Below are positions 928 through 33,561 of a stretch of 35,619 nt of DNA, piece by piece. The DNA is from Actinomycetes bacterium (GTDB taxonomy: Bacteria > Actinomycetota > Acidimicrobiia > Acidimicrobiales > RAAP-2), in contig JAKAPH010000007.1 in assembly GCA_021807265.1 (NCBI GenBank), positions 1 to 35,619 on the forward strand, in the 5' to 3' direction. The notes beneath the pieces are model-generated. The model made no database searches. It saw only the letters and a program-made list of their open reading frames with translations, and was not told where the DNA came from. Within the stretch, counting starts at the first letter, position 1, and each line of letters starts with the position of its first letter. The position numbers and the translations under genes are program-made.

Positions 928-3900
928 GTGGACGGGCACGAGGCGACACGCCGCTGGTTGATCGCGGCTGGTATCGCGTGGGAAGTCGCCGTCATCGCAA
1001 CCGACCTCGCGATGGAGAGCCATCACGTCACACTGATCTTGCTCACGGTTCCCGTCCTCGCGTTGTCGCCCTATGTGTCGCGCGCCACGACGGTCGTGGG
1101 CTCGTTCGTCGCGTTTCTCGCCGCCCTCGTGCTCAGCATCCACGACCGCACCGTCAACACCGAGCGTCAATGGACGTCGCTCGTCGTGGTGGTGCTCGTG
1201 TGCTCCTTCGCCGTGTGGATCGCGACGCTGACTCGGCGGCTTGGCAATCAGGTCGTAGCGGCCTCAGAGGAAGCGAATCACGACAGCCTCACTGGACTTC
1301 GCAATCGCCGCGGTATTAGTACCGGGACGCTGGATGGCCTCGAGGGGGGCCGGCCCCTCGCCGTGATTTTGGTGGATCTGGATCACTTCAAGCAGGTGAA
1401 CGACACCTACGGGCACGACGTGGGTGATCAGGTGCTGATTGAGGTGGCGCACCGACTGCGCGGCGCCGTGCGCGACCAAGACGTGGTCTCGCGCTACGGG
1501 GGCGAGGAGTTCGTCGTGCTCTCGCGAAGCGGGGACGACGCACCAACGATCGCCGAGCGAATCCTGCACGACCTGCGAAGCCAGCCCGTCGACACCCCGA
1601 GCGTGGCCCTCACCGTCACCGCGTCGGCAGGCGTTGCGAGCGTCGACGACGAGGGTGGGGTCGAGTTCGCCCTGCTGCGCGCCGACGAAGCGCTCTACGC
1701 GGCGAAGCGGGCTGGGCGAGATCAAGTGGTGGTGTGGAGCGCCTCGGCGTCACAGTGGTGGAATGCTCCGCGCGACGAGCACGTGCGACGGGCACCCCGA
1801 AACGGGTTGACATCGCCTGCGCCCACCCCGTTGATCGGCAGTGGCGCCCTGCTCGAGCACGTTCACTACCTCATCGGAACGGGGTCGATGGCCTGGATTG
1901 ACACGGACGTGAGTGGGCGCATTGTGGGTGCGTCGACGTCGGTGGACACGATCCTCGGCGTGACGCCCGACGAGATTGAGGGCACGATGTCCTGGGACCT
2001 GTTCGACGAGCGTGACCGAACCGTGGCCCGCTCCAGGCGACAGGCCATCTTGCGCGGCGAGGTCGTGGGCGAGCGACCATTGCGGGTGCAGCACGCAACG
2101 AGGGGCAGCCGCTGGGTCATCGTCGGAGCGACGCGGCGCGTGAGCGCCGGTGAGGTAGTCGGTGCGGTGATGAGCCTGCGCGAGTTCCACGCCGAGACGG
2201 TGCAACGTCACGCTCTCGCCGCCCTCCTGGAGGCGGGCAAGCTCTTCGCGACCGCTGAATCAGAGTCGACCCTCGTGCAGCAACTCTGCGACGCCTTGGT
2301 CAACCACGGCGAATACGTCTTCGCGTGGTACGGACGACGGCGCGAGGACTTCACGGTCGAAAAGGTCGCGATGAGTCGCGAGCACCGCGAATACCTCAAC
2401 TCGGTCTCCCTGCGCTACGACGACAGCGCCGTCGGAAGAGGTCCGACGGGGCGCGCCCTCGCGACGGAGGTGATCCAGACGATCGACGACCTTCAGAGCG
2501 AGGCGTCGTTCCTGCCGTGGCAACAGGCGGCGCTGCTGCACGGCTTCCGATCGTCGATCGCAATCCCGGTCTTCGCATCCTCGCAGCTCGACGGTGTCAT
2601 CACCATCTACGCCGGTGAGAGCGAAGCGTTCCCTCGGGTCGCTCAAGAGACGCTGACGCAGATCGCGATCCTGGTCGGTTCGAGTCTGGAGCGCATCCGC
2701 ACGAGGCAGCGCATGGCCGAGAGTTCGTCCCAAGAGGCCATTCTCTCGCGCGCCATCGATCAGACCAGCGACTCGGTGCTCATCACCGATGTTCATGGTC
2801 AGATCATCTTCGTCAACGACGCGCTGCTGGAGAACTCGGGATTCGAGCGCGATGAGGTGATCGGACACAACCCTCGCATCTTCCAGAGCGGTTTGACACC
2901 GCCCGACGTGTACACGCAGATGTGGGATCGACTGTTGCGCCGCGAAACGTGGCGCGGCCAGGTCGTCAATCGCCGCAAGGACGGACGGCTGATCTTCGAG
3001 CAGACCACTATCTCTCCACTCGTCGAAGGGGATCGCATCGTCGGCTACGTCGGCGTGCGCAAGGACATGACCGGACTGTTTGCCCTCGAGGAGCGCTTGG
3101 GTGACGTCGTCAACGAGCGCCAGGCGCTGACCCTCGCGTTCTCCGAACCGCTGGCGGCCACGGATTTTGCGGAGGCGGCGAGGGACTTCTGCGTGCGCTT
3201 GCTCTCGCTGCCGGCGGTCAAGTCCGCGCGTATCGCGGTATTGGGAACGAGCCATTCGCTGCTTCCCGAGGTGGTCGACTTCCACGGGGTGCTGCACCTC
3301 GGTGGCGAGCCCATCGAACTCGATCCAGACGTGGTCGCACGATTGGAGTCGGGACCGCTGCTGCTGGTATCGGCGACTGAGGAACACATCGGCGAGCGAG
3401 TGCTGGCCCCTTCGCTGCTGACGGCACTCGGGGAGGAGACCTACAAGCGCGCCGCGCTTGTAGGTCTCTCGTGGGGCGCAGTTCCCCGTGCGCTTGTCGT
3501 GATGGGCGTCAGCAATGACGCCGATCTGGTCCAAATGGACGACATCATGTTCCGCGAGATCGGCTTGATCGCGACGCAGTCGCTCGCCGAGCTGGCTTTG
3601 CGCTACGCGGACTCCTACGCCGGCCGCCAACAGATGGCCGAGCTCATCGCGGACAAGTCCTTCGACACGCGGTTCCAGCCGATCGTGGACTTTCGCTCCG
3701 GCACGACGCTGGGATTCGAGGCACTGACCAGGTTCCAAGACGGTCGGACGCCGGATCAGGTCTTCGACGAGTCCGGCCGGTTGGGCTATCGCGGCGAACT
3801 CGAGCGTGCGTGCGCCCAGTCCGCGCTCGACCAGGCGACGCTCCTGCCGCCCGATGCGTTCGTGACGCTCAACTTCCTTCCCAGTGTGCTCAGCGAAACG

Positions 3901-4326
3901 GCCACGCGGCACCTCATCAACGAGTCCGCTCGTCCGGTCATCGTCGAGGTCACCGAGTACGCGGCCGTCGACGACTACTCCCAATTGCTCGACGCCATCG
4001 CGACCCTGCCCAACGCGAGGCTGGCGGTCGACGATGCTGGCGCCGGGCATTCGAGCCTACGCCACGTGATGGAACTCAATCCCGACATCGTCAAGATCGA
4101 CATCTCACTCATCAGCAACATCGACGCGCGGCCCGACAAACAGGCGCTCGTCGCGTCCCTGGTCCACTTCGGATCCCTGACCGGGACGATCCTGGTCTTT
4201 GAGGGCGTCGAGCGGGCCGAGGAGTTCGAGACACTGAGCGACCTCGCCCGGGAATGGCCCGAGGCGATCGTGTGGGGACAGGGCTACTGGTGGTCCCGCC
4301 CGGCTCCCGTGTCGACGTTCCGCTAG
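928..4326 (+). CDS. Membrane GGDEF-PAS-GAF-PAS-EAL cyclic-di-GMP protein
   Basis: This 1132-residue protein probably both makes and degrades cyclic di-GMP. About four membrane helices fill residues 1-105. The GGDEF domain follows (about 117-270) with an intact GGEEF site at 191-195 and an RDQD inhibitory I-site exactly five residues upstream. Then come a PAS-like domain (~315-420), a GAF domain (~435-600), a second PAS (~605-720) and a GAF-like stretch (~730-900). The C-terminal EAL domain has E931 in FEALTRF, the Asn of LNFLP, Glu of VEVTE, the Asp pair of DDAGAG, Lys of IVKID, Glu of FEGVE and Gln of GQGYW, so catalytic residues look complete. The unusual point is order: GGDEF is N-terminal and separated from EAL by about 600 residues of sensory domains. 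The gene carries a perfect 33-bp palindrome at 3436-3468 and ends 7 bp from a convergent PAS-GAF-PAS gene. Confidence 0.9.
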   Translation: MDGHEATRRWLIAAGIAWEVAVIATDLAMESHHVTLILLTVPVLALSPYVSRATTVVGSFVAFLAALVLSIHDRTVNTERQWTSLVVVVLVCSFAVWIATLTRRLGNQVVAASEEANHDSLTGLRNRRGISTGTLDGLEGGRPLAVILVDLDHFKQVNDTYGHDVGDQVLIEVAHRLRGAVRDQDVVSRYGGEEFVVLSRSGDDAPTIAERILHDLRSQPVDTPSVALTVTASAGVASVDDEGGVEFALLRADEALYAAKRAGRDQVVVWSASASQWWNAPRDEHVRRAPRNGLTSPAPTPLIGSGALLEHVHYLIGTGSMAWIDTDVSGRIVGASTSVDTILGVTPDEIEGTMSWDLFDERDRTVARSRRQAILRGEVVGERPLRVQHATRGSRWVIVGATRRVSAGEVVGAVMSLREFHAETVQRHALAALLEAGKLFATAESESTLVQQLCDALVNHGEYVFAWYGRRREDFTVEKVAMSREHREYLNSVSLRYDDSAVGRGPTGRALATEVIQTIDDLQSEASFLPWQQAALLHGFRSSIAIPVFASSQLDGVITIYAGESEAFPRVAQETLTQIAILVGSSLERIRTRQRMAESSSQEAILSRAIDQTSDSVLITDVHGQIIFVNDALLENSGFERDEVIGHNPRIFQSGLTPPDVYTQMWDRLLRRETWRGQVVNRRKDGRLIFEQTTISPLVEGDRIVGYVGVRKDMTGLFALEERLGDVVNERQALTLAFSEPLAATDFAEAARDFCVRLLSLPAVKSARIAVLGTSHSLLPEVVDFHGVLHLGGEPIELDPDVVARLESGPLLLVSATEEHIGERVLAPSLLTALGEETYKRAALVGLSWGAVPRALVVMGVSNDADLVQMDDIMFREIGLIATQSLAELALRYADSYAGRQQMAELIADKSFDTRFQPIVDFRSGTTLGFEALTRFQDGRTPDQVFDESGRLGYRGELERACAQSALDQATLLPPDAFVTLNFLPSVLSETATRHLINESARPVIVEVTEYAAVDDYSQLLDAIATLPNARLAVDDAGAGHSSLRHVMELNPDIVKIDISLISNIDARPDKQALVASLVHFGSLTGTILVFEGVERAEEFETLSDLAREWPEAIVWGQGYWWSRPAPVSTFR
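3436..3468. repeat. Perfect 33-bp palindrome inside the GGDEF-EAL gene
   Basis: The left arm at 3436-3451 begins GAGACCTAC and its exact reverse complement lies at 3453-3468, separated by one base. It encodes residues 837-847 (around TYKRAALVG) in the GAF-like segment before the EAL domain. A 16-bp perfect arm inside coding sequence is very unlikely by chance. Confidence 0.95.
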
Positions 4327-4333
4327 GGCGAAC

Positions 4334-5686
4334 CTAGTCCTCGGGCGCTGTCGATGCGGATTCGGTGAGCACGCCAATTCGCGCGGGCCGCCCGTCAAAC
4401 TCCGTGACGATCGACCTCGCGCGCACTCCGATCCGTCGCCCCGTGTCGTCCAGTGTCTCGAAGGTGAAGTCGATGTTCCCCTCGTCGTTGGTGCGCGTCT
4501 TTTCGATCAGTGCGTCGAGGCGATCGCGGAACTCTGTTGGCACACTGAGCCGCGACTCGCGGCCGATCAGCTCCTTCGCCGAGGAGAAGCCCAGCAGTTT
4601 GGCCGAGCGGTCGTTCAGGAAACTGAACCGGCTGTCCTGGATCACGTAGATGCCGAGGTGGAGCTGGTCCAGGGCGTGATTGAGGTTTCGCTCGAACCGG
4701 GTGGCGACTTCCCTTGAGCGCAACTCCTGTCGGCGCGAGGAGAAGTTCTCGAGCGCGTAAGAGATGTCCGAGGAGACCTCGCTGAGCAGTCGGTCGATCT
4801 CCTCGCTGAAATGCAACTCGCTGCGCGAGTACGCGGTCAGGACGGCCACGGTCGACCCGTCGCGTTTGAGGGGGAGTGATTCGCTGGACGCCCAGTGGTG
4901 CTTGATCACCAGCTGGCCGATGGCGTCGTCCGCCAGTGTCGTGGACGCGCGGCGCCAGACAATGCGGCCCTCGTTCAACGAGATCAACGCCAAGTCGTAG
5001 GAGGCCGCTGGGTTCCGCTCGAGGATCTCCTGGCGCGCGGCGAGGAACTCCTCGACCCCCACCCCGGCCCAGGCCACGGGTACGAGCTCGCGTCCGTTGT
5101 CGAACTGGCCGATCCACGCGGCGTCGGCGTGACCGGAGTCCACCATCGCCTGGCACACGCGGTGGAAGAGCTCCGATTCGTCGTGGCTGTTCACCGTCGC
5201 GTGATTGCAAGCGCTGAGCGTCTTGTACAGCTTGACGAGCTCCTCGTTGGACACCTCGATCGCCTTGCGATCGCCGACATCGAAGATGACGCCCCGAATC
5301 GTGAGGCCAGAGCCCGTCTCGTCGCGGGCTACGACGCGACCGCGGACGCAGAGCCAGTGAATGCTCTGGTCCGGCCAGAGAACACGGAAGTCGAACTCGT
5401 ATGAGTCAGGCCCCCCGGGCGCGAGTGACTCATCAATGACCCGGTTGGCGAGAGGGCGGTCCTCGTCAATGGTTGCGTCTAGGAAGGTTTCAGCGTGCCA
5501 AGGGTTCTGCCAGTCCAGTCCGTAGAGCGCGTCGTGATTCGCGGATCGCTGCATCAGGTTTTCGCGGACGTTGTACTCCCAAACGGCCACACCGCTCATC
5601 TCGGTCGTTACTCGAAGCAACTCATCGGAAGCGAGCAACTCATAAGGGAGGGGGGCCCGTCTAGAACGCTCGTCGTCGCTCGACAT
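4334..5686 (-). CDS. PAS-GAF-PAS sensory protein without output domain
   Basis: This 450-residue soluble protein has an N-terminal PAS domain (about residues 20-145), a GAF domain (about 160-310) and a C-terminal PAS domain (about 330-440). It stops there, with no GGDEF, EAL, kinase, phosphatase or DNA-binding domain and no membrane helix. It may sense a ligand or redox cue and act on a partner, or be the sensory remnant of a longer signalling protein. The ATG at 5686 is chosen over a TTG at 5695 because GGAGGT sits 8 nt before it. The gene converges on the GGDEF-EAL gene, whose PAS/GAF content it resembles; a functional pairing is inference only. Confidence 0.75.
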   Translation of the reverse strand: MSSDDERSRRAPLPYELLASDELLRVTTEMSGVAVWEYNVRENLMQRSANHDALYGLDWQNPWHAETFLDATIDEDRPLANRVIDESLAPGGPDSYEFDFRVLWPDQSIHWLCVRGRVVARDETGSGLTIRGVIFDVGDRKAIEVSNEELVKLYKTLSACNHATVNSHDESELFHRVCQAMVDSGHADAAWIGQFDNGRELVPVAWAGVGVEEFLAARQEILERNPAASYDLALISLNEGRIVWRRASTTLADDAIGQLVIKHHWASSESLPLKRDGSTVAVLTAYSRSELHFSEEIDRLLSEVSSDISYALENFSSRRQELRSREVATRFERNLNHALDQLHLGIYVIQDSRFSFLNDRSAKLLGFSSAKELIGRESRLSVPTEFRDRLDALIEKTRTNDEGNIDFTFETLDDTGRRIGVRARSIVTEFDGRPARIGVLTESASTAPED

Positions 5687-5700
5687 ACGAAGCAACCTCC

Positions 5701-6340: not shown

Positions 6341-6349
6341 TAGGTGGTT

Positions 6350-6997
6350 ATGGTGCTCAAGTCTGTGGAAAACCGTCTGGAGCGGCTCTTCGAGCGGACT
6401 TTCGCGCGTCCGTTCAAGAGTGGGCTGCAGCCAATCGAGATCGGTGCGCGGATCATCCGCGAGGTGGACCTGACGCGCCAACTGACGAACCAGGGACCGA
6501 TCTCGCCGAACGAGATTCACGTCTGGTTGAGCCCCGCCGACGCGAATCGGTTCGACGGATTCCAAAAGGCGTTGATCAGTGAGCTCGAGGAGACGGTCCG
6601 CCAGCACGCGATCAACGAGGGGTACAACTTCGTCGGACCGGTCGCGGTCGAGATATTCGTCGACGACGATCTTCGAACCGGCGACCTCGCGGTCAAGACC
6701 GATTTCCTCGGCGGCGATGCGCACCCGCGGCTCATCGCTGACGACGGACGCACCTTCACGATCGGCGACCGACCAGTCGTGATTGGGCGTAGCCCCGACG
6801 TGGACGTCGTCATCAATGACTCGAACGTCTCGCGTCGCCACGCGGAGGTCTGGCGAACGGCTGAAGGGGTCGCCATCAGGGATTTGCAGTCAACGAACGG
6901 GACCTACGTGAACGGACATCGTGTCACCGCGGTCTCGCTCTCGCCCCGTGACGACGTGACCGTCGGGGCGCTGCACCTACGGATTGAGTTGGCTTGA
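6350..6997 (+). CDS. fhaA: FHA-domain protein FhaA (DUF3662-FHA)
   Basis: This 215-residue protein has the FhaA N-terminal domain (DUF3662, about residues 1-115, beginning with a short helix around SVENRLERLF) and a C-terminal FHA domain. The phosphothreonine-binding signature is complete: GRS, SRRH and STNGTYVNG. FHA domains dock phosphorylated kinase or partner proteins, and FhaA in mycobacteria binds phosphorylated pseudokinase MviN in control of peptidoglycan synthesis. Mycobacterial FhaA is much longer (about 527 residues) because of a low-complexity linker; here the two domains are nearly adjacent. First gene of the cluster; its TGA overlaps the TTG start of fhaB. GTG 6344 is an alternative start two codons earlier. 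Confidence 0.88.
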   Translation: MVLKSVENRLERLFERTFARPFKSGLQPIEIGARIIREVDLTRQLTNQGPISPNEIHVWLSPADANRFDGFQKALISELEETVRQHAINEGYNFVGPVAVEIFVDDDLRTGDLAVKTDFLGGDAHPRLIADDGRTFTIGDRPVVIGRSPDVDVVINDSNVSRRHAEVWRTAEGVAIRDLQSTNGTYVNGHRVTAVSLSPRDDVTVGALHLRIELA

Positions 6998-7449
6998 GTC
7001 TTCTCGCCGCGTCGTCGAACTACGCCGCGGTGATCCGGCCGCTGCAAGTCCTGGTCATGGTCGTGGCCCTGCTCTTCTTCGCGCGCGTCCTGCGCGTGGC
7101 GATGGTCGAGTCCCGGCCAGCCGACCAGGAGTCGGGCCGGTCCCGGCGCAAGCGGTCGGTCCCACTGGCGTTGGAGTTCCTTGAGCCCGACGACATGGCG
7201 GGCGGACGGATCGACGTGGACCTGGCGGTCGTGATCGGTCGCGGCGCCGACTGCGACGTCTCACTGTCGGACACCTTCCTCTCGACGCGCCACGCCCGTG
7301 TGGCGAACGATGCGGGTGACCTGTCGATCGAGGACCTGGGCTCGACGAACGGGACCTACGTGAACCAAGAGCTCATTCGCGGGCGGGTACTGCTCAAGCG
7401 GGGCGACGTGATCCAGGTCGGAGGCGTCCTCTTGGAGGTGGTTCGTTGA
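6994..7449 (+). CDS. fhaB: Membrane-anchored FHA-domain protein FhaB/FipA
   Basis: This 151-residue protein has one N-terminal membrane helix (about residues 13-32, around VLVMVVALLFF), a short basic linker, and a cytoplasmic FHA domain with GRG, STRH and STNGTYVN. In mycobacteria the homologue FipA (FhaB) interacts with FtsZ and FtsQ and is a PknA substrate. The TTG start is chosen because it forms a TTGA overlap with the fhaA stop, leaves the membrane helix intact, and matches the identical overlap at the next junction. It lies between fhaA and pstP as in other actinobacteria. Confidence 0.9.
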   Translation: MSLLAASSNYAAVIRPLQVLVMVVALLFFARVLRVAMVESRPADQESGRSRRKRSVPLALEFLEPDDMAGGRIDVDLAVVIGRGADCDVSLSDTFLSTRHARVANDAGDLSIEDLGSTNGTYVNQELIRGRVLLKRGDVIQVGGVLLEVVR

Positions 7450-8660
7450 CGCGGTGGCGCTTCGCGGCCGCGACGGATACCGGTCTCGTGCGCGACGCGA
7501 ATGAGGACGCCTGGTCGGTCGACCGCACCCTGGCCATCGTCGCCGACGGCATGGGCGGCCACGCCGCGGGGGAGGTGGCGTCGTCACTCGCCGTCGAGGT
7601 GATCACCCGCGAGTTCCACGAGAATGAGACGGTGGACGGCCTCTACGCCGCGGTCGAGGCGGCGAACCAGTCGGTGCTCGCCGACGCCGTCGCCAACCCC
7701 GAGCGCTTCGGCATGGGCACCACGGTCATCGCCATCGCGCTGACCGAGGACGCGACGGGCGTCGTCTCGCCGACCCTCGTCAACGTGGGCGACTCGCGGG
7801 TCTACCAACTCCGTGACGGGGCGCTGCGCCAGCTGAGCGACGACCACAGCGTGGCCGAAGAGTGGGTCCGGATGGGTCGGCTCACCCCCGAAGAGGCGGC
7901 GGTCCACCCGCGGCGCCACCAGCTGACCCGGGTGCTCGGCATGGACGAGTCGGTCGAGATCGACATGGTCTCGGTGGTGGCCCAGCCGGGCGACCGGCTC
8001 CTGCTGTGCAGTGACGGCCTGTCCAACGAGCTCACCCCGGAGCAGCTCGTGCAGCTGGCGAGCCCGCCGATGCCCCTTGAGGACTCGGTGGAGAAACTGG
8101 TCGCCGCGGCCAAGGACGCCGGCGGACGCGACAACATCACGGTCGTCCTGGTCGAGTTCGACGAGGTCGTGGCGACGATGACCCCGGTGAAGAAGACGAT
8201 CTCGACCGCCCCGGCGGCCGTTGCGCCGCCGCGGTCCACGCGTCGGCGCTCGTCGTGGCTCACGTGGCGCGTCGCCCTCGCGTCACTGGTGTTGGTCGGT
8301 GTGGCGGCCGGTTTCGTCGCCATCATGCACTGGTACGCGTATTCGACGTACTACCTCGCCGACGACTCGGGCTACATCGCGATCTACCAGGGACAGCCGA
8401 ACGGGGTCCTGTGGTTCTCGTCGCGTAAGGTCCTGGATACGTCGTATCCTTCCGCTCACCTCCTGCCCGCGGCCCAGCGGCAGTTGGCCGCGACCATCAG
8501 CGAACCGTCGCTCACCTCGGCGCTGAGCTACGCGGCGTACCTCAACCGGGCCTGGCACCTCTCGCGCAGCATCTCGACCCCGACGACAACCACTTCGACA
8601 TCCACCTCGACGACGACCACGACGGTTCCGGCGACCACCACGACTAAGGCGAAGGGGTAG
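7446..8660 (+). CDS. pstP: PP2C-type Ser/Thr phosphatase PstP
   Basis: This is the 404-residue partner phosphatase of the PASTA kinase. The PP2C catalytic domain occupies residues 1-240 with the metal and phosphate ligands in NEDAW, VADGMGGHAAGE, GDSRVY, SDGLSN and GGRDNI. A basic Pro/Ala linker, one membrane helix (~275-297) and a small extracellular domain beginning YYLADDSG follow, typical of PstP. The protein ends in a Thr/Ser-rich tail of about 30 residues. The TTG start forms a TTGA overlap with fhaB. In mycobacteria the next gene is rodA; here pbpA starts only 3 nt after the pstP stop. Confidence 0.95.
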   Translation: MTRWRFAAATDTGLVRDANEDAWSVDRTLAIVADGMGGHAAGEVASSLAVEVITREFHENETVDGLYAAVEAANQSVLADAVANPERFGMGTTVIAIALTEDATGVVSPTLVNVGDSRVYQLRDGALRQLSDDHSVAEEWVRMGRLTPEEAAVHPRRHQLTRVLGMDESVEIDMVSVVAQPGDRLLLCSDGLSNELTPEQLVQLASPPMPLEDSVEKLVAAAKDAGGRDNITVVLVEFDEVVATMTPVKKTISTAPAAVAPPRSTRRRSSWLTWRVALASLVLVGVAAGFVAIMHWYAYSTYYLADDSGYIAIYQGQPNGVLWFSSRKVLDTSYPSAHLLPAAQRQLAATISEPSLTSALSYAAYLNRAWHLSRSISTPTTTTSTSTSTTTTTVPATTTTKAKG

Positions 8661-8663
8661 GCC

Positions 8664-10166
8664 GTGTCGCGCCGGTTGAGCGTCTTCGCGATCGCCATCA
8701 TGCTGCTCTTCGCGGCGATCGCCGCCCAGGCGGTCAACATCCAGTTCTTCAAGGCGCCGGCCCTCGACGCGTCGATCCAGAACCCGCGCAACTCGCAGTC
8801 CAACAACCAGTACCCGCGCGGTGAGATCGTCGCCGCCGACGGGACGGTCCTGGCGGAGTCGGTCCCGGCGACGAAGGGCTACTACCCCTACACGCGCGTC
8901 TACCCGCTGGGCTCGCTGACCTCGGGCCTCGTGGGCTTCGCCTCCCCGTTCTACGGGACCTGGGCCCTGGAGGCCGAGTACAACCAGTACCTGATCTCGC
9001 ACGCCCAGCCGCCCCAGAGCCTGGCCCAGGTCCTCGCGCCGACGTCGGCCGCGGACACGGTCTCGATCACGCTCCAGCCGTCCCTGGAGCGCGTCGCCGC
9101 GACGGCCCTCGCCGGGCGCAACGGCGGTGCGGTTGTGCTCGACCCGCGCACCGGCGCGGTCCTCGCGATGTACTCCAACCCGACGTACAACCCCAAACCG
9201 TTCGAGTCGTCGAGCTTCGCCGTGGCGGCCAAGGCCTGGAAGACCGACGTCGCCAACAACGCCTACGGGTTCCCCCCGCTCGGCAACCTCGCGATCCAGC
9301 AGACCTTCCCGCCCGGCTCAACCTTCAAGATCGTGACGACGAGCGCGGTGGTCGCGAAGAAGCCGAGCCTGTTCACCAAGAGCTTCCCGGTCCTCGCGAC
9401 GATCCACCTGCCCGACTCGAACAAGACCCTCTCGAACTACGCCTTCGTGCCCTGCGGTGGCGACATCCCCCAGATGCTGCCGCCCTCGTGCGACCAGGGC
9501 TACGCGCTCATCGGCCTCGACCTCGGCGGGAACATCCTCGCCGAGACGGCCAACTCCTACGGGTTCAACGCCGTGCCCCCGATCGACCTGCCCGGCGCGC
9601 AGTCGAGCTTCTTCCCCTCGGCGGCGTCCTTCCTCTACAACAAGCCGGGCATCGCGTACTCGGCCATCGGCCAGCAGAACGTCCGTGCCTCGGCGTTGCA
9701 GATGGCGCTCGTGGCGGCCGGGGTCGCGAACGGTGGCACCGTCATGGCCCCGCACCTGCTCAACTACATCTCGGGTCCCGACGGGTCGGTCGTGAAGCGG
9801 TACCAGGACACCGCCTGGAAGACGCCGCTCACCGCCGCCCAGGCGGCCCGGATCGTGCCGCTGATGCAAGAAGTCGTCCAGGCGTCGGACGGCACGGCCT
9901 ACGGCATCTTCCCGGCGTGGGCCGACGTGGCGGCCAAGACCGGCACCGCCCAGGTCGGCAACTCGGTCCAGAACACCGACGACTGGATGATCGCCTTCGC
10001 CCCGGCGACGCACCCGACCGTCGCGGTGGCGGTCGTGCTGCCCTACCAAGTCACCTCCGCGACGGGTGCGTCGGTGGCCGGGCCGGTCATCCGCTGTCTC
10101 ATCGAAGGTGCCCTCGCGCTGCAGGCCGGGCGACCGGCGTCGGGGACGTCGACGACATGTCCGTGA
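8664..10166 (+). CDS. pbpA: Class B penicillin-binding protein PbpA, unusual second motif
   Basis: This 500-residue peptidoglycan transpeptidase has an N-terminal membrane anchor (residues 5-23), a pedestal domain with RGEIVAADG, and the transpeptidase domain. The catalytic SxxK is S219-T-F-K222 and KTGTA begins at K425. At the position of the second motif, normally SxN, the sequence reads S275-C-D277, so the conserved Asn appears to be Asp. The surrounding YALIGLDLG matches the expected helix, so misplacement is unlikely but an alignment is needed. It follows pstP by 3 nt with no intervening rodA, the usual SEDS partner. The GTG start keeps the anchor intact. Confidence 0.92.
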   Translation: MSRRLSVFAIAIMLLFAAIAAQAVNIQFFKAPALDASIQNPRNSQSNNQYPRGEIVAADGTVLAESVPATKGYYPYTRVYPLGSLTSGLVGFASPFYGTWALEAEYNQYLISHAQPPQSLAQVLAPTSAADTVSITLQPSLERVAATALAGRNGGAVVLDPRTGAVLAMYSNPTYNPKPFESSSFAVAAKAWKTDVANNAYGFPPLGNLAIQQTFPPGSTFKIVTTSAVVAKKPSLFTKSFPVLATIHLPDSNKTLSNYAFVPCGGDIPQMLPPSCDQGYALIGLDLGGNILAETANSYGFNAVPPIDLPGAQSSFFPSAASFLYNKPGIAYSAIGQQNVRASALQMALVAAGVANGGTVMAPHLLNYISGPDGSVVKRYQDTAWKTPLTAAQAARIVPLMQEVVQASDGTAYGIFPAWADVAAKTGTAQVGNSVQNTDDWMIAFAPATHPTVAVAVVLPYQVTSATGASVAGPVIRCLIEGALALQAGRPASGTSTTCP

Positions 10167-10196
10167 CCACGCGGGTAATCCAGGTGGGCCAGGACG

Positions 10197-10202
10197 TAGG
10201 CT
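10197..10202 (+). promoter_or_regulatory. -10 element of pknB
   Basis: TAGGCT ends 9 nt before the pknB ATG, in a 45-bp gap after pbpA. It suggests pknB has its own, nearly leaderless transcript. The same hexamer precedes tRNA-Ala. Confidence 0.45.
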
Positions 10203-10211
10203 GGGGCGGGT

Positions 10212-12104
10212 ATGGAGCCCGTTAGCGATCCACGTATCTACTCGCAGCGCTACCAGGTGACCCACCTGATAGCCCGCGGCGGCATGGCCATGGTCTACCG
10301 GGCCCAGGACTTGCTGCTCAATCGCGCCGTCGCCCTGAAGATTCTCTACCCCGAGCTCTCGGCCGACCCCACCTTCGTCGAGCGGTTCCGGCGCGAGGCG
10401 CAGGCCGCGGCGAACCTCTCGCACCCCAACATCGTCCCGGTCTTCGACTGGGGCCAGGACGCTGGTACCTACTTCATCGTCATGGAACTGGTCGACGGGA
10501 CCTCCCTCGCCGAGATCGTGCGGGGCTCGCGCACGCTCACGCCGTCGCGGGCCGCACAGATCACCGCGCAGGTGGCCGCCGCCCTGGGCTACGCGCACCG
10601 CGCCGGCGTCGTGCACCGCGACATCAAGCCCGGCAACATCCTCATCACCACCGACGGACAGGTGAAGGTGACCGACTTCGGCATCGCCCAGGCGGTCGCG
10701 AGCGAGGACCACCTGGCCGAGGCCGGCTCGGTCATGGGCACCGCGACGTACTTCTCGCCCGAGCAGGCCGAGGGAGCCGCGGTCGACGGCCGCAGCGACG
10801 TCTACTCACTGGGCGTCGTCCTTTACGAGTTGCTCGTCGGTCGCCCGCCCTACATCGGCGACTCGCCGGTCGCGGTGTCGAGTCAGCACGTCCACGGCAC
10901 CATCCCGTCGCCGTCGGACTTCTCGGACTCGGTTCCCACCGATCTCGAGGCGATCGTCATGCTCGCCCTCGCCAAGTCCCCGGACCAGCGCTATCAGACC
11001 GCCGACGAGTTGCGAGCCGACCTCGTTCGCTTCACCGACGGCCAACCGGTGCACGCCGCGACGCGCGACGGCGCCTACTACGGCGCCGACGTGACTCGGG
11101 CCGTCGCGACCGTCACGCCCGGCGAACGGACCCAGGCCGTGCCGGTCATGTCCGGCCCACGCACCGACGTGCGCCGTCGTCGCGGTGGCGCGCGCGGGTT
11201 CGTGATCGCGATCGTGATCATCCTGCTGCTCGCCGCCGGGGGCTACGCCTACGCCCGCCTCGCGACGGCGAACTCGGTGTCGACCATGCCCGACGTCGTC
11301 GGTCAGACCGTCGCGTCCGCGTCCTCGACCCTGCTCGCGGACAACCTCGTGATCGGCACCACGAAGCTCGTGTACTCCCCGAAGGCCTCGGGCACCGTCG
11401 TCAAGACCGACCCGTCCTCGGGTGCGTCGGTGAAGAAGGGTGACACCGTCGCCCTGGAAGTCAGCCAGGGTCCCGCGCCGACGAAGGTGACCGTCCCCGA
11501 CGAGACCGGCAAGGCCCTCTCGACCGCCCTGAGTGCGCTCCAGCAGCTCGGCTTCGTGGTCACGGTCAACCAGACCTCCACCGCGCCGGCCGGCGGCGCA
11601 CCCAACACGGTGCTCTCCCAGACGCCCCTTGGCGGCACGCAGTCCCACGCGGGGGCGAAGGTCGTCCTGACCGTGCTCTCCCAGGGCGCGACCTTCCCGC
11701 TGCCCGACGTCCGTAGCGACTCGCCGCTCCAGGCGGCGGCCACCCTCGGCCAGAACGGACTGTCGGTCAGCTCGACGACGACGGGCTGTTCGAACACGGT
11801 GGCGCAGGGCTTGGTGCTTCGCACGGTCCCGGCCGCCGGTTCGATGGTGACGTCGGGCACGTCAGTCGAGCTGGTCACGTCCTCGGGGGTCTGCCAGGTC
11901 TACGTCGCCAACGTGATCGGCCAGACGCCCGCCGAGGCGTCGTCGACCCTCTCGGCCCAGGGACTCAACCTGGGACAGGTGACCGACGCCCTGCCGACGG
12001 ACTGCCTGACGCCGGGGACCTCGGGCCAGATCATCAGCCAGAACCCCGGTCCGGGGATCTCGGTGCCCTACGACTCGAGCGTGGACGTCACCGTCTGCCC
12101 GTAG
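10212..12104 (+). CDS. pknB: PASTA-repeat Ser/Thr protein kinase PknB
   Basis: This 630-residue receptor kinase controls growth and division. The kinase domain (about residues 12-275) is complete: GGMAMVYRA glycine loop, VALKIL lysine, HRDIKPGN catalytic loop, TDFGIA metal site and SPEQAEG. A basic juxtamembrane segment and one membrane helix (~330-350) follow, then four extracellular PASTA repeats (approx. 355-425, 425-490, 490-560, 560-630) that in homologues sense muropeptides or lipid II. Repeats 3 and 4 contain cysteines (GCSN, VCQV, DCLT and the final VCP), which could form disulfides outside the cell. pknA, usually adjacent, is absent here, so this kinase may serve the roles of both. 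Confidence 0.96.
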   Translation: MEPVSDPRIYSQRYQVTHLIARGGMAMVYRAQDLLLNRAVALKILYPELSADPTFVERFRREAQAAANLSHPNIVPVFDWGQDAGTYFIVMELVDGTSLAEIVRGSRTLTPSRAAQITAQVAAALGYAHRAGVVHRDIKPGNILITTDGQVKVTDFGIAQAVASEDHLAEAGSVMGTATYFSPEQAEGAAVDGRSDVYSLGVVLYELLVGRPPYIGDSPVAVSSQHVHGTIPSPSDFSDSVPTDLEAIVMLALAKSPDQRYQTADELRADLVRFTDGQPVHAATRDGAYYGADVTRAVATVTPGERTQAVPVMSGPRTDVRRRRGGARGFVIAIVIILLLAAGGYAYARLATANSVSTMPDVVGQTVASASSTLLADNLVIGTTKLVYSPKASGTVVKTDPSSGASVKKGDTVALEVSQGPAPTKVTVPDETGKALSTALSALQQLGFVVTVNQTSTAPAGGAPNTVLSQTPLGGTQSHAGAKVVLTVLSQGATFPLPDVRSDSPLQAAATLGQNGLSVSSTTTGCSNTVAQGLVLRTVPAAGSMVTSGTSVELVTSSGVCQVYVANVIGQTPAEASSTLSAQGLNLGQVTDALPTDCLTPGTSGQIISQNPGPGISVPYDSSVDVTVCP

Positions 12105-33524: not shown

Positions 33525-33561
33525 CAGCGCGACGCCGGGCCCGGGGCCCGGCGTCGCGCTG
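33525..33561. terminator. Perfect 37-bp palindrome, probable bidirectional terminator
   Basis: An 18-bp arm and its exact reverse complement meet around one central base (33543), GC-rich throughout. It lies in the 49-bp gap between the MarR stop and the convergent cytochrome bc-type gene, and so can end both transcripts. There is no T tract. Confidence 0.85.

What the first reader, a model, noticed from the sequence alone, without database searches (positions are those of the whole stretch)
3436..3468. Perfect 33-bp palindrome inside the GGDEF-EAL gene
Two 16-base arms with a single central base are exact reverse complements inside coding sequence between sensory and EAL domains. Such a hairpin could stall ribosomes or RNA polymerase, bind a dimeric protein, or be the footprint of an insertion. 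It is not needed by the amino acid sequence, since synonymous codons would break it.
Basis: seen in the sequence. Interest (0 to 1): 0.65.

Follow-up and report, generated by a model that had tools for sequence, protein, structure and literature searches.

The report
Copy-error palindrome inside a signalling gene
A perfect 33-base palindrome inside a bacterial signalling gene is real and unlikely to be chance, but no relative examined shares it, and it looks like the scar of a known DNA-copying error (one stretch copied backwards onto its neighbour) rather than a control element.

Summary
The palindrome is real: window 3436-3468 holds two perfect 16-base arms around one base, in frame in a 1132-aa GGDEF-PAS-GAF-PAS-GAF-EAL gene. 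It is the only hairpin with arms of 16 or more inside a called gene in 569 kb of its genome; synonymous shuffles give about 0.06 per Mb.

It lies inside a cryptic GAF domain, not between domains. The 28 homologues that span the site have no matching stem, and 394 other class genomes lack the sequence at up to 3 mismatches. No terminator-like site, Rfam family or second copy was found.

Best explanation: replication template switching (quasipalindrome 'correction'), one arm copied from the other. The strongest support is indirect: homologue L013 has a 14-base-arm palindrome in the same domain where two relatives pair only 5 of 14 positions, with the changes clustered in one arm. Homologue L125 has another, weaker case. 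The nearest homologue of the focal gene is 40% identical, so its ancestral sequence and the copying direction are not shown. New member of a known kind; recurrence in one domain family is the unusual part.

The parts
3436..3451 (+). Left arm GAGACCTACAAGCGCG (codons for ETYKR plus first base of A842); all common codons
3452..3452 (+). Central base (C)
3453..3468 (+). Right arm CGCGCTTGTAGGTCTC (last base of A842, then ALVGL); holds the less common codons CTT GTA GGT and the Gly (846) that stands where 28 of 28 aligned homologues have Pro
3490..3497 (+). Third copy of the 8-base word GCGCTTGT (in frame, ALV again); the only three copies in the window, one of them inverted, all lie in 3443-3497
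928..4326 (+). Host gene: 1132-aa GGDEF (116-266) - PAS - GAF - PAS - cryptic GAF - EAL (902-1125) protein
   Evidence: the cryptic GAF
3091..3612 (+). Cryptic GAF-like domain (residues 722-895) that holds the palindrome; the palindrome encodes a loop and 7 of the 9 residues of one strand (model residues 120-128)
   Evidence: No Pfam match in this protein, but 22 of 29 aligned members match GAF_2 at E<=0.01; AlphaFold2 pLDDT 85.7; top PDB matches are GAF-containing, with modest TM-scores (0.57 for rank 1)

Best explanation
The palindrome is a mutational scar made by replication template switching (quasipalindrome 'correction'). While this stretch was copied, the new strand paired with a short complementary stretch close by, either by folding back on itself or by switching to the other strand. 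It was extended using one arm as template and then returned to its proper template, so that one arm became an exact reverse complement of the other. The change stayed in frame and was tolerated in a diverged GAF sensory domain. SHOWN: the perfect palindrome; its rarity; no matching stem in the homologues examined; a local departure of the protein (Gly where 28 of 28 homologues have Pro); and, in the same domain of homologue L013, a one-arm cluster of changes that makes a perfect palindrome. INFERRED: that the focal palindrome arose the same way, that it happened in one event, and that it has no function now. Copying direction is open: codon usage and the lost Pro suggest left arm to right arm; a third copy of GCGCTTGT downstream and a possible 3-residue gain in the left arm suggest the reverse.
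For: (1) Chance is unlikely. (2) Long coding palindromes are in excess in the pooled genus sample: arms >=12, 15 seen against 5.4 expected, largest of 150 shuffles 14 (five genomes, 1.04 Mb). (3) Homologue L013: 14-base-arm palindrome CATCAAGACGGCGA-GATGG-TCGCCGTCTTGATG in the same GAF domain. Relatives L010 and L125 (80% and 76% identical over the domain) pair only 5 of 14 positions; L013's left arm has 7 private changes in 14 bases, a density reached by 6 of 2414 windows of the gene, overlapping ones included (mean 1.62); its right arm has 4 (189 of 2414). (4) L125 has another 14-base-arm palindrome in the same domain. Two such in 14.6 kb of 28 homologous domains against 0.0015 expected; 0 of 2000 shuffles had two. 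(5) At the focal site: residue 846 is P in 28 of 28 homologues, G here; the right arm has CTT GTA GGT, the left arm only common codons; three copies of GCGCTTGT in 55 bases and none elsewhere in the window. (6) The mechanism is established in E. coli (PMC7202029, abstract and passages) and reported to alter yeast proteins, with one 16-base-arm case listed though not statistically tested there (PMC8604942, abstract and section 5).
Against: No close orthologue was found: the best is 40% identical, so an imperfect ancestor was never seen. The direction clues conflict. Three-codon windows as rare as CTT GTA GGT occur at 9 of 1130 places in the gene. Where extra residues lie depends on the alignment: tblastn against L007 puts a 3-residue gap inside the palindrome, the family HMM puts 4 residues upstream. 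Neighbouring residues also depart from the family, so the lost Pro may be ordinary divergence. The excess is not clear in the own genome alone: arms >=11, 8 against 7.7; >=12, 5 against 2.3, reached by 8 of 100 shuffles. In the pooled set arms >=13, >=14 and >=15 were reached by 2, 16 and 1 of 150 shuffles; and 2 of the 15 with arms >=12 (L223, L254) look locally non-coding, leaving 13, which is within the shuffle maximum. L125's arms are not unusually altered (3 and 2 private changes; 853 and 1502 of 2414 windows as high), so that case fits ordinary substitutions. Two other coding palindromes compared with relatives (L170, L219) differ from their nearest ones by only 2-3 point changes. The domain enrichment was noticed post hoc.
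Confidence: 0.72

Rival explanations
1. Chance: ordinary substitutions and codon choice happened to give a perfect 33-base palindrome.
For: The expected number is small but not zero, 0.05-0.06 per Mb of coding sequence, so across many scanned genomes such sites will appear. The own genome alone shows no clear excess of arms of 11-13. Windows as rare in codons occur elsewhere in the gene.
Against: 0 of 100 shuffles of 476 kb gave arms >=16. In 150 shuffles of the pooled set the mean was 0.06 and the maximum 1, against 2 printed, of which I count 1 as coding. Homologue L013 shows a clustered one-arm change.
Confidence: 0.12
2. A functional hairpin or cruciform: a pause site for RNA polymerase or ribosome, an mRNA stability element, or a binding site for a dimeric protein.
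For: Very stable stem (RNA -49.9 kcal/mol over 93 nt, z -3.39; DNA z -5.46); less common codons in the right arm.
Against: No stem of comparable length at this site in 28 homologues: the best perfect arm within 101 nt is 4-8 in 27; L013 has 14, starting about 11 codons further on and with a different sequence. No terminator-like site, no Rfam match at the gathering score there, single copy. It lies inside a structural domain, not at a domain boundary, where pauses are usually invoked (recalled).
Confidence: 0.09
3. Footprint or fragment of a mobile or repeat element (insertion-sequence end, REP-like element).
For: tblastn against the probable positional orthologue L007 leaves a 3-residue gap there.
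Against: Single copy in the own genome and none in 394 other class genomes at up to 3 mismatches; no exact match in viral contigs. In the alignment 28 homologues run through the site without a gap. Target-site duplication was not tested.
Confidence: 0.03
4. Assembly or sequencing artefact of a fragmented draft genome.
For: The genome is in 156 contigs and 82% complete; reads are not available.
Against: The frame is open through the site and homology to the GAF and EAL domains lies on both sides. A fold-back chimera would continue as inverted sequence beyond 16 bases; this does not.
Confidence: 0.04

Closest known systems
[quoted passage not shown] coli (PMC7202029; abstract and passages seen)
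   Same: An imperfect inverted repeat becomes a perfect or more perfect one by copying during replication; closely spaced arms; bacterial coding sequence.
   Different: There the event is selected in a lacZ reporter and before/after sequences are known; here only the outcome is seen.
Template switching between inverted-repeat arms in yeast protein-coding genes (PMC8604942; abstract and section 5 read)
   Same: Perfect inverted repeats coinciding with multinucleotide changes and amino-acid replacements; arms of 7-16 bases.
   Different: That study places events on a strain phylogeny; here a one-arm change is seen only for homologue L013, not for the focal gene.
Coding palindromes in mitochondrial genes of Nematomorpha (PMC6649704; passages seen)
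   Same: Perfect inverted repeats embedded in coding sequence, for which template switching is offered as a possible mechanism.
   Different: Those are up to 284 bp, numerous, and four are in the same locations in four species; this one is 33 bp, single and not at the same place in homologues.

Membership tests
Template-switch (quasipalindrome-correction) product | Perfect or more perfect closely spaced inverted repeat | tested here: met
   16/16 pairs, 1-base spacer
Template-switch (quasipalindrome-correction) product | More frequent than expected given protein and codon usage | tested here: met
   For this site. For shorter palindromes of the own genome alone the excess is not clear.
Template-switch (quasipalindrome-correction) product | Ancestor or sister carries an imperfect version, with clustered changes in one arm | tested here: inconclusive
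   Focal gene: nearest homologue 40% identical, no ancestor visible. Homologue L013: met. Homologue L125: arm changes not clustered.
Template-switch (quasipalindrome-correction) product | Formation stimulated by replication stress | not testable with these tools
   Needs a reporter strain
Intrinsic transcription terminator | Hairpin followed by a T tract | tested here: not met
   0 sites on either strand of 3000-4400
REP-like repeat or other repeat family | Many copies in the genome | tested here: not met
   One place in the own genome at up to 3 mismatches; the arm alone has 3 further places, each with 2 mismatches
Known structured RNA (Rfam) | Match at the gathering score | tested here: not met
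   Only 3 tRNAs in the window; in 3300-3600 only a sub-threshold snoRNA match at 3397-3430, outside the palindrome
Conserved regulatory hairpin | Stem kept in homologues | tested here: not met
   No stem at the same place in 28 homologues; they are about 30-40% identical, so species-level conservation is untested

The most novel reading that the evidence does not exclude
The GAF sensory domain of this GGDEF/EAL family is a recurrent target of inverted-repeat template switching, so that the sensor is repeatedly rewritten by several residues at once: a local, inverted-repeat-driven source of sensor diversity in this lineage. Besides the focal gene, 2 of 28 homologous domains (L013, L125) carry different perfect palindromes with 14-base arms, against 0.0015 expected.
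Probability: 0.08. Interest if true: 0.6.

Novelty: new member of a known kind. Interest (0 to 1): 0.27.

Why it matters
It shows that a striking perfect hairpin inside a gene need not be a control element: a known copying error can make one and change several amino acids at once. If the recurrence in one sensory domain holds up, it would be a natural case of template switching shaping a bacterial signalling protein family, beyond the E. coli reporters and yeast genes of the papers seen here. On its own, the focal palindrome is a curiosity of genome evolution.

Tried and rejected
Terminator, structured RNA and repeat family: no support. Conserved hairpin: no equivalent stem in homologues. Insertion: the family HMM aligns the palindrome without an insertion and puts 4 extra residues upstream, tblastn to L007 puts 3 inside; left open. 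Direction of copying: codon rarity, lost Pro and the downstream GCGCTTGT copy disagree; left open. In one search the window ranking used a wrong offset and was replaced. The census gene caller is simple: L223 (19-base arms) scores as non-coding locally (0.01 of the median), so I do not count it as coding although it is in the printed counts; L254 is also weak (0.04). Hairpins close to predicted gene starts in L152, L212 and L213 are probably upstream of the true starts; they are absent from the list, which trims 60 codons. Searching genome contigs with the whole protein returned 80 kept loci, mostly matching only the GGDEF domain. Following two other coding palindromes into sister genomes showed only small numbers of point differences, which neither supports nor excludes template switching. 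Of 30 homologue loci, 2 did not span the site and were left out.

Full report
THE OBSERVATION. Window 3436-3468 reads GAGACCTACAAGCGCG C CGCGCTTGTAGGTCTC, a perfect inverted repeat with 16-base arms and a 1-base spacer. It lies in frame in ORF 928-4326 (+), 1132 aa, whose Pfam domains are GGDEF 116-266, PAS (two stretches), GAF 444-587 and EAL 902-1125. It encodes residues 837-847, ETYKRAALVGL. As RNA the 93-nt neighbourhood folds at -49.9 kcal/mol (z -3.39); as DNA a 53-nt stretch has z -5.46.

WHERE IT LIES. Pfam finds nothing at 722-895 in this protein, but 22 of the 29 aligned members of this region match GAF_2 at E<=0.01. AlphaFold2 gives pLDDT 85.7. The best solved-structure match is entry 4g3v, titled 'A. 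Aeolicus nlh2 gaf domain' (E 7e-6, TM 0.57 by query length), with other GAF-containing entries below it. The palindrome encodes a loop and 7 of the 9 residues of one strand (model residues 120-128 = 841-849). So it is inside a sensory domain, not between domains.

CHANCE. In 569,072 bases of the own genome (61 stretches, 35% of it) there are 7 perfect hairpins with arms >=16 and spacer <=9; only this one is inside a called gene. Synonymous-codon shuffling within genes gives arms >=16 in 0 of 100 runs (476 kb), a mean of 0.05 on 1.12 Mb from five genomes of the genus and 0.06 on 1.04 Mb with a stricter gene set; the three overlap in data. The observed number is 2, but one (L223) scores as non-coding locally, so I count 1. 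Only 1 of 1,769,472 encodings of the peptide is palindromic, probability 9e-6 under genome codon usage. Chance is unlikely but, over many scanned genomes, not excluded.

A GENERAL EXCESS? In the pooled sample arms >=12 number 15 against 5.4 expected, and no shuffle of 150 reached 15 (maximum 14). Two of the 15 look locally non-coding, and 13 would be within the shuffle range. Arms >=13, >=14 and >=15 were reached by 2, 16 and 1 of 150. In the own genome alone there is no clear excess: arms >=11, 8 against 7.7 (51 of 100); arms >=12, 5 against 2.3 (8 of 100). A published survey reports palindromes over-represented in most prokaryotic phyla and mentions template switching as one proposed cause; [quoted passage not shown] That this genome is actinobacterial is my guess from gene content (recalled), not a call.

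RELATIVES. The 33-mer with up to 3 mismatches occurs in 1 of 395 class genomes examined, its own, and has no exact match in viral contigs. The surrounding 301 bases match 1 of 99 other genomes, a 31-base match at E 9.5e-4 in G077 outside the palindrome. The protein is found at E<=0.001 in 82 of 99 genus genomes (own included), but the best match elsewhere is 40% identical over residues 320-1126 (G030, L007). L007 is probably the positional orthologue, since the window's next gene also matches about 1 kb downstream of it. Close sisters of the genome exist (601 bases of a conserved gene are 87-90% identical in G066, G002, G122 and G115), but their best matches to this protein are 33-37%. Of 30 homologue loci, 28 span the site. 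None has a stem there: the best perfect arm within 101 nt is 4-8 in 27 of them; L013 has 14, starting about 11 codons further on.

SIGNS OF A LOCAL EVENT. Residue 846 is P in 28 of 28 homologues and G here. The right arm has codons CTT, GTA, GGT (genome share 0.070, 0.055, 0.171); the left arm has common codons only. Three-codon windows as rare occur at 9 of 1130 places in the gene, so this is modest. The word GCGCTTGT occurs three times in the window, all within 3443-3497, once inverted. Residues 848, 854 and 855 also depart from the family, so part of the divergence may be ordinary.

THE SAME THING IN A HOMOLOGUE. L013 (G020) has CATCAAGACGGCGAGATGGTCGCCGTCTTGATG (14-base arms, spacer 5) in the same domain, encoding HQDGEMVAVLM. 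Relatives L010 and L125 encode IYKGEMVAVLT and LYKGEMVAVLS. Their DNA pairs at only 5 of 14 positions; L013 pairs at 14. Its left arm has 7 private changes in 14 bases (6 of 2414 overlapping windows reach this; mean 1.62) and its right arm 4 (189 of 2414). A cluster in one arm that makes it the exact complement of the other is what copying by template switch predicts. L125 has another 14-base-arm palindrome in the domain; there the relatives pair 9 and 7 of 14 and the arms are not unusually altered, so it is a weaker case. Two such in 14,613 bases of 28 homologous domains compare with 0.0015 expected from shuffles, 0 of 2000 runs with two; using the observed background rate instead, the Poisson probability is 1e-4 to 0.002. 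This enrichment was noticed after the fact, and both genes belong to one group of close relatives.

MECHANISM. The best reading is template switching, known in E. coli (PMC7202029, abstract and passages), in yeast coding genes, where a 16-base-arm case is listed (PMC8604942, abstract and section 5), and proposed for RNA stems (PMC8794818, abstract and opening text). For the focal gene this is an inference by analogy and exclusion, because no close orthologue was found. The direction is unresolved. I found nothing that requires a present function. Tolerance in a diverged sensory domain would explain why the change survived (inference).

ALTERNATIVES. Pausing, termination, protein binding and mobile-element readings lack support. 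An assembly error is unlikely because frame and homology run through, but reads were not available.

VERDICT. Real, unlikely by chance, most likely a mutational scar of a known kind. The recurrence in one domain family is worth a proper phylogenetic test.

Noticed in passing
window 33525-33561: A second perfect palindrome (18-base arms, 1-base spacer, very GC-rich), outside called genes, a few bases after a TGA on the + strand and with no T tract after it; probably a terminator-like element.
   Followed up: partly
L013 2314-2346 and L125 2622-2653: Two homologues of the host gene carry different perfect palindromes (14-base arms) in the same GAF domain; the L013 one shows a one-arm cluster of changes as template switching predicts.
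   Followed up: yes
window 928-4326 versus L007: The host gene reads GGDEF and PAS-GAF-PAS-GAF-EAL as one protein, whereas at the homologous place in G030 the GGDEF part and the rest are in separate adjacent reading frames: a fusion or a split.
   Followed up: no
window 4334-5695 (-): The next gene, on the other strand, is another PAS-GAF-PAS protein.
   Followed up: no
L223 10034-10072: A 39-base perfect palindrome (19-base arms) in G123, in a stretch that the simple gene caller took as coding but that scores as non-coding.
   Followed up: partly
window 6344-12101: FhaA-FHA, PP2C phosphatase, penicillin-binding protein and PASTA kinase genes close together on one strand, a cell-wall/division signalling cluster typical of Actinobacteria (recalled).
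   Followed up: no
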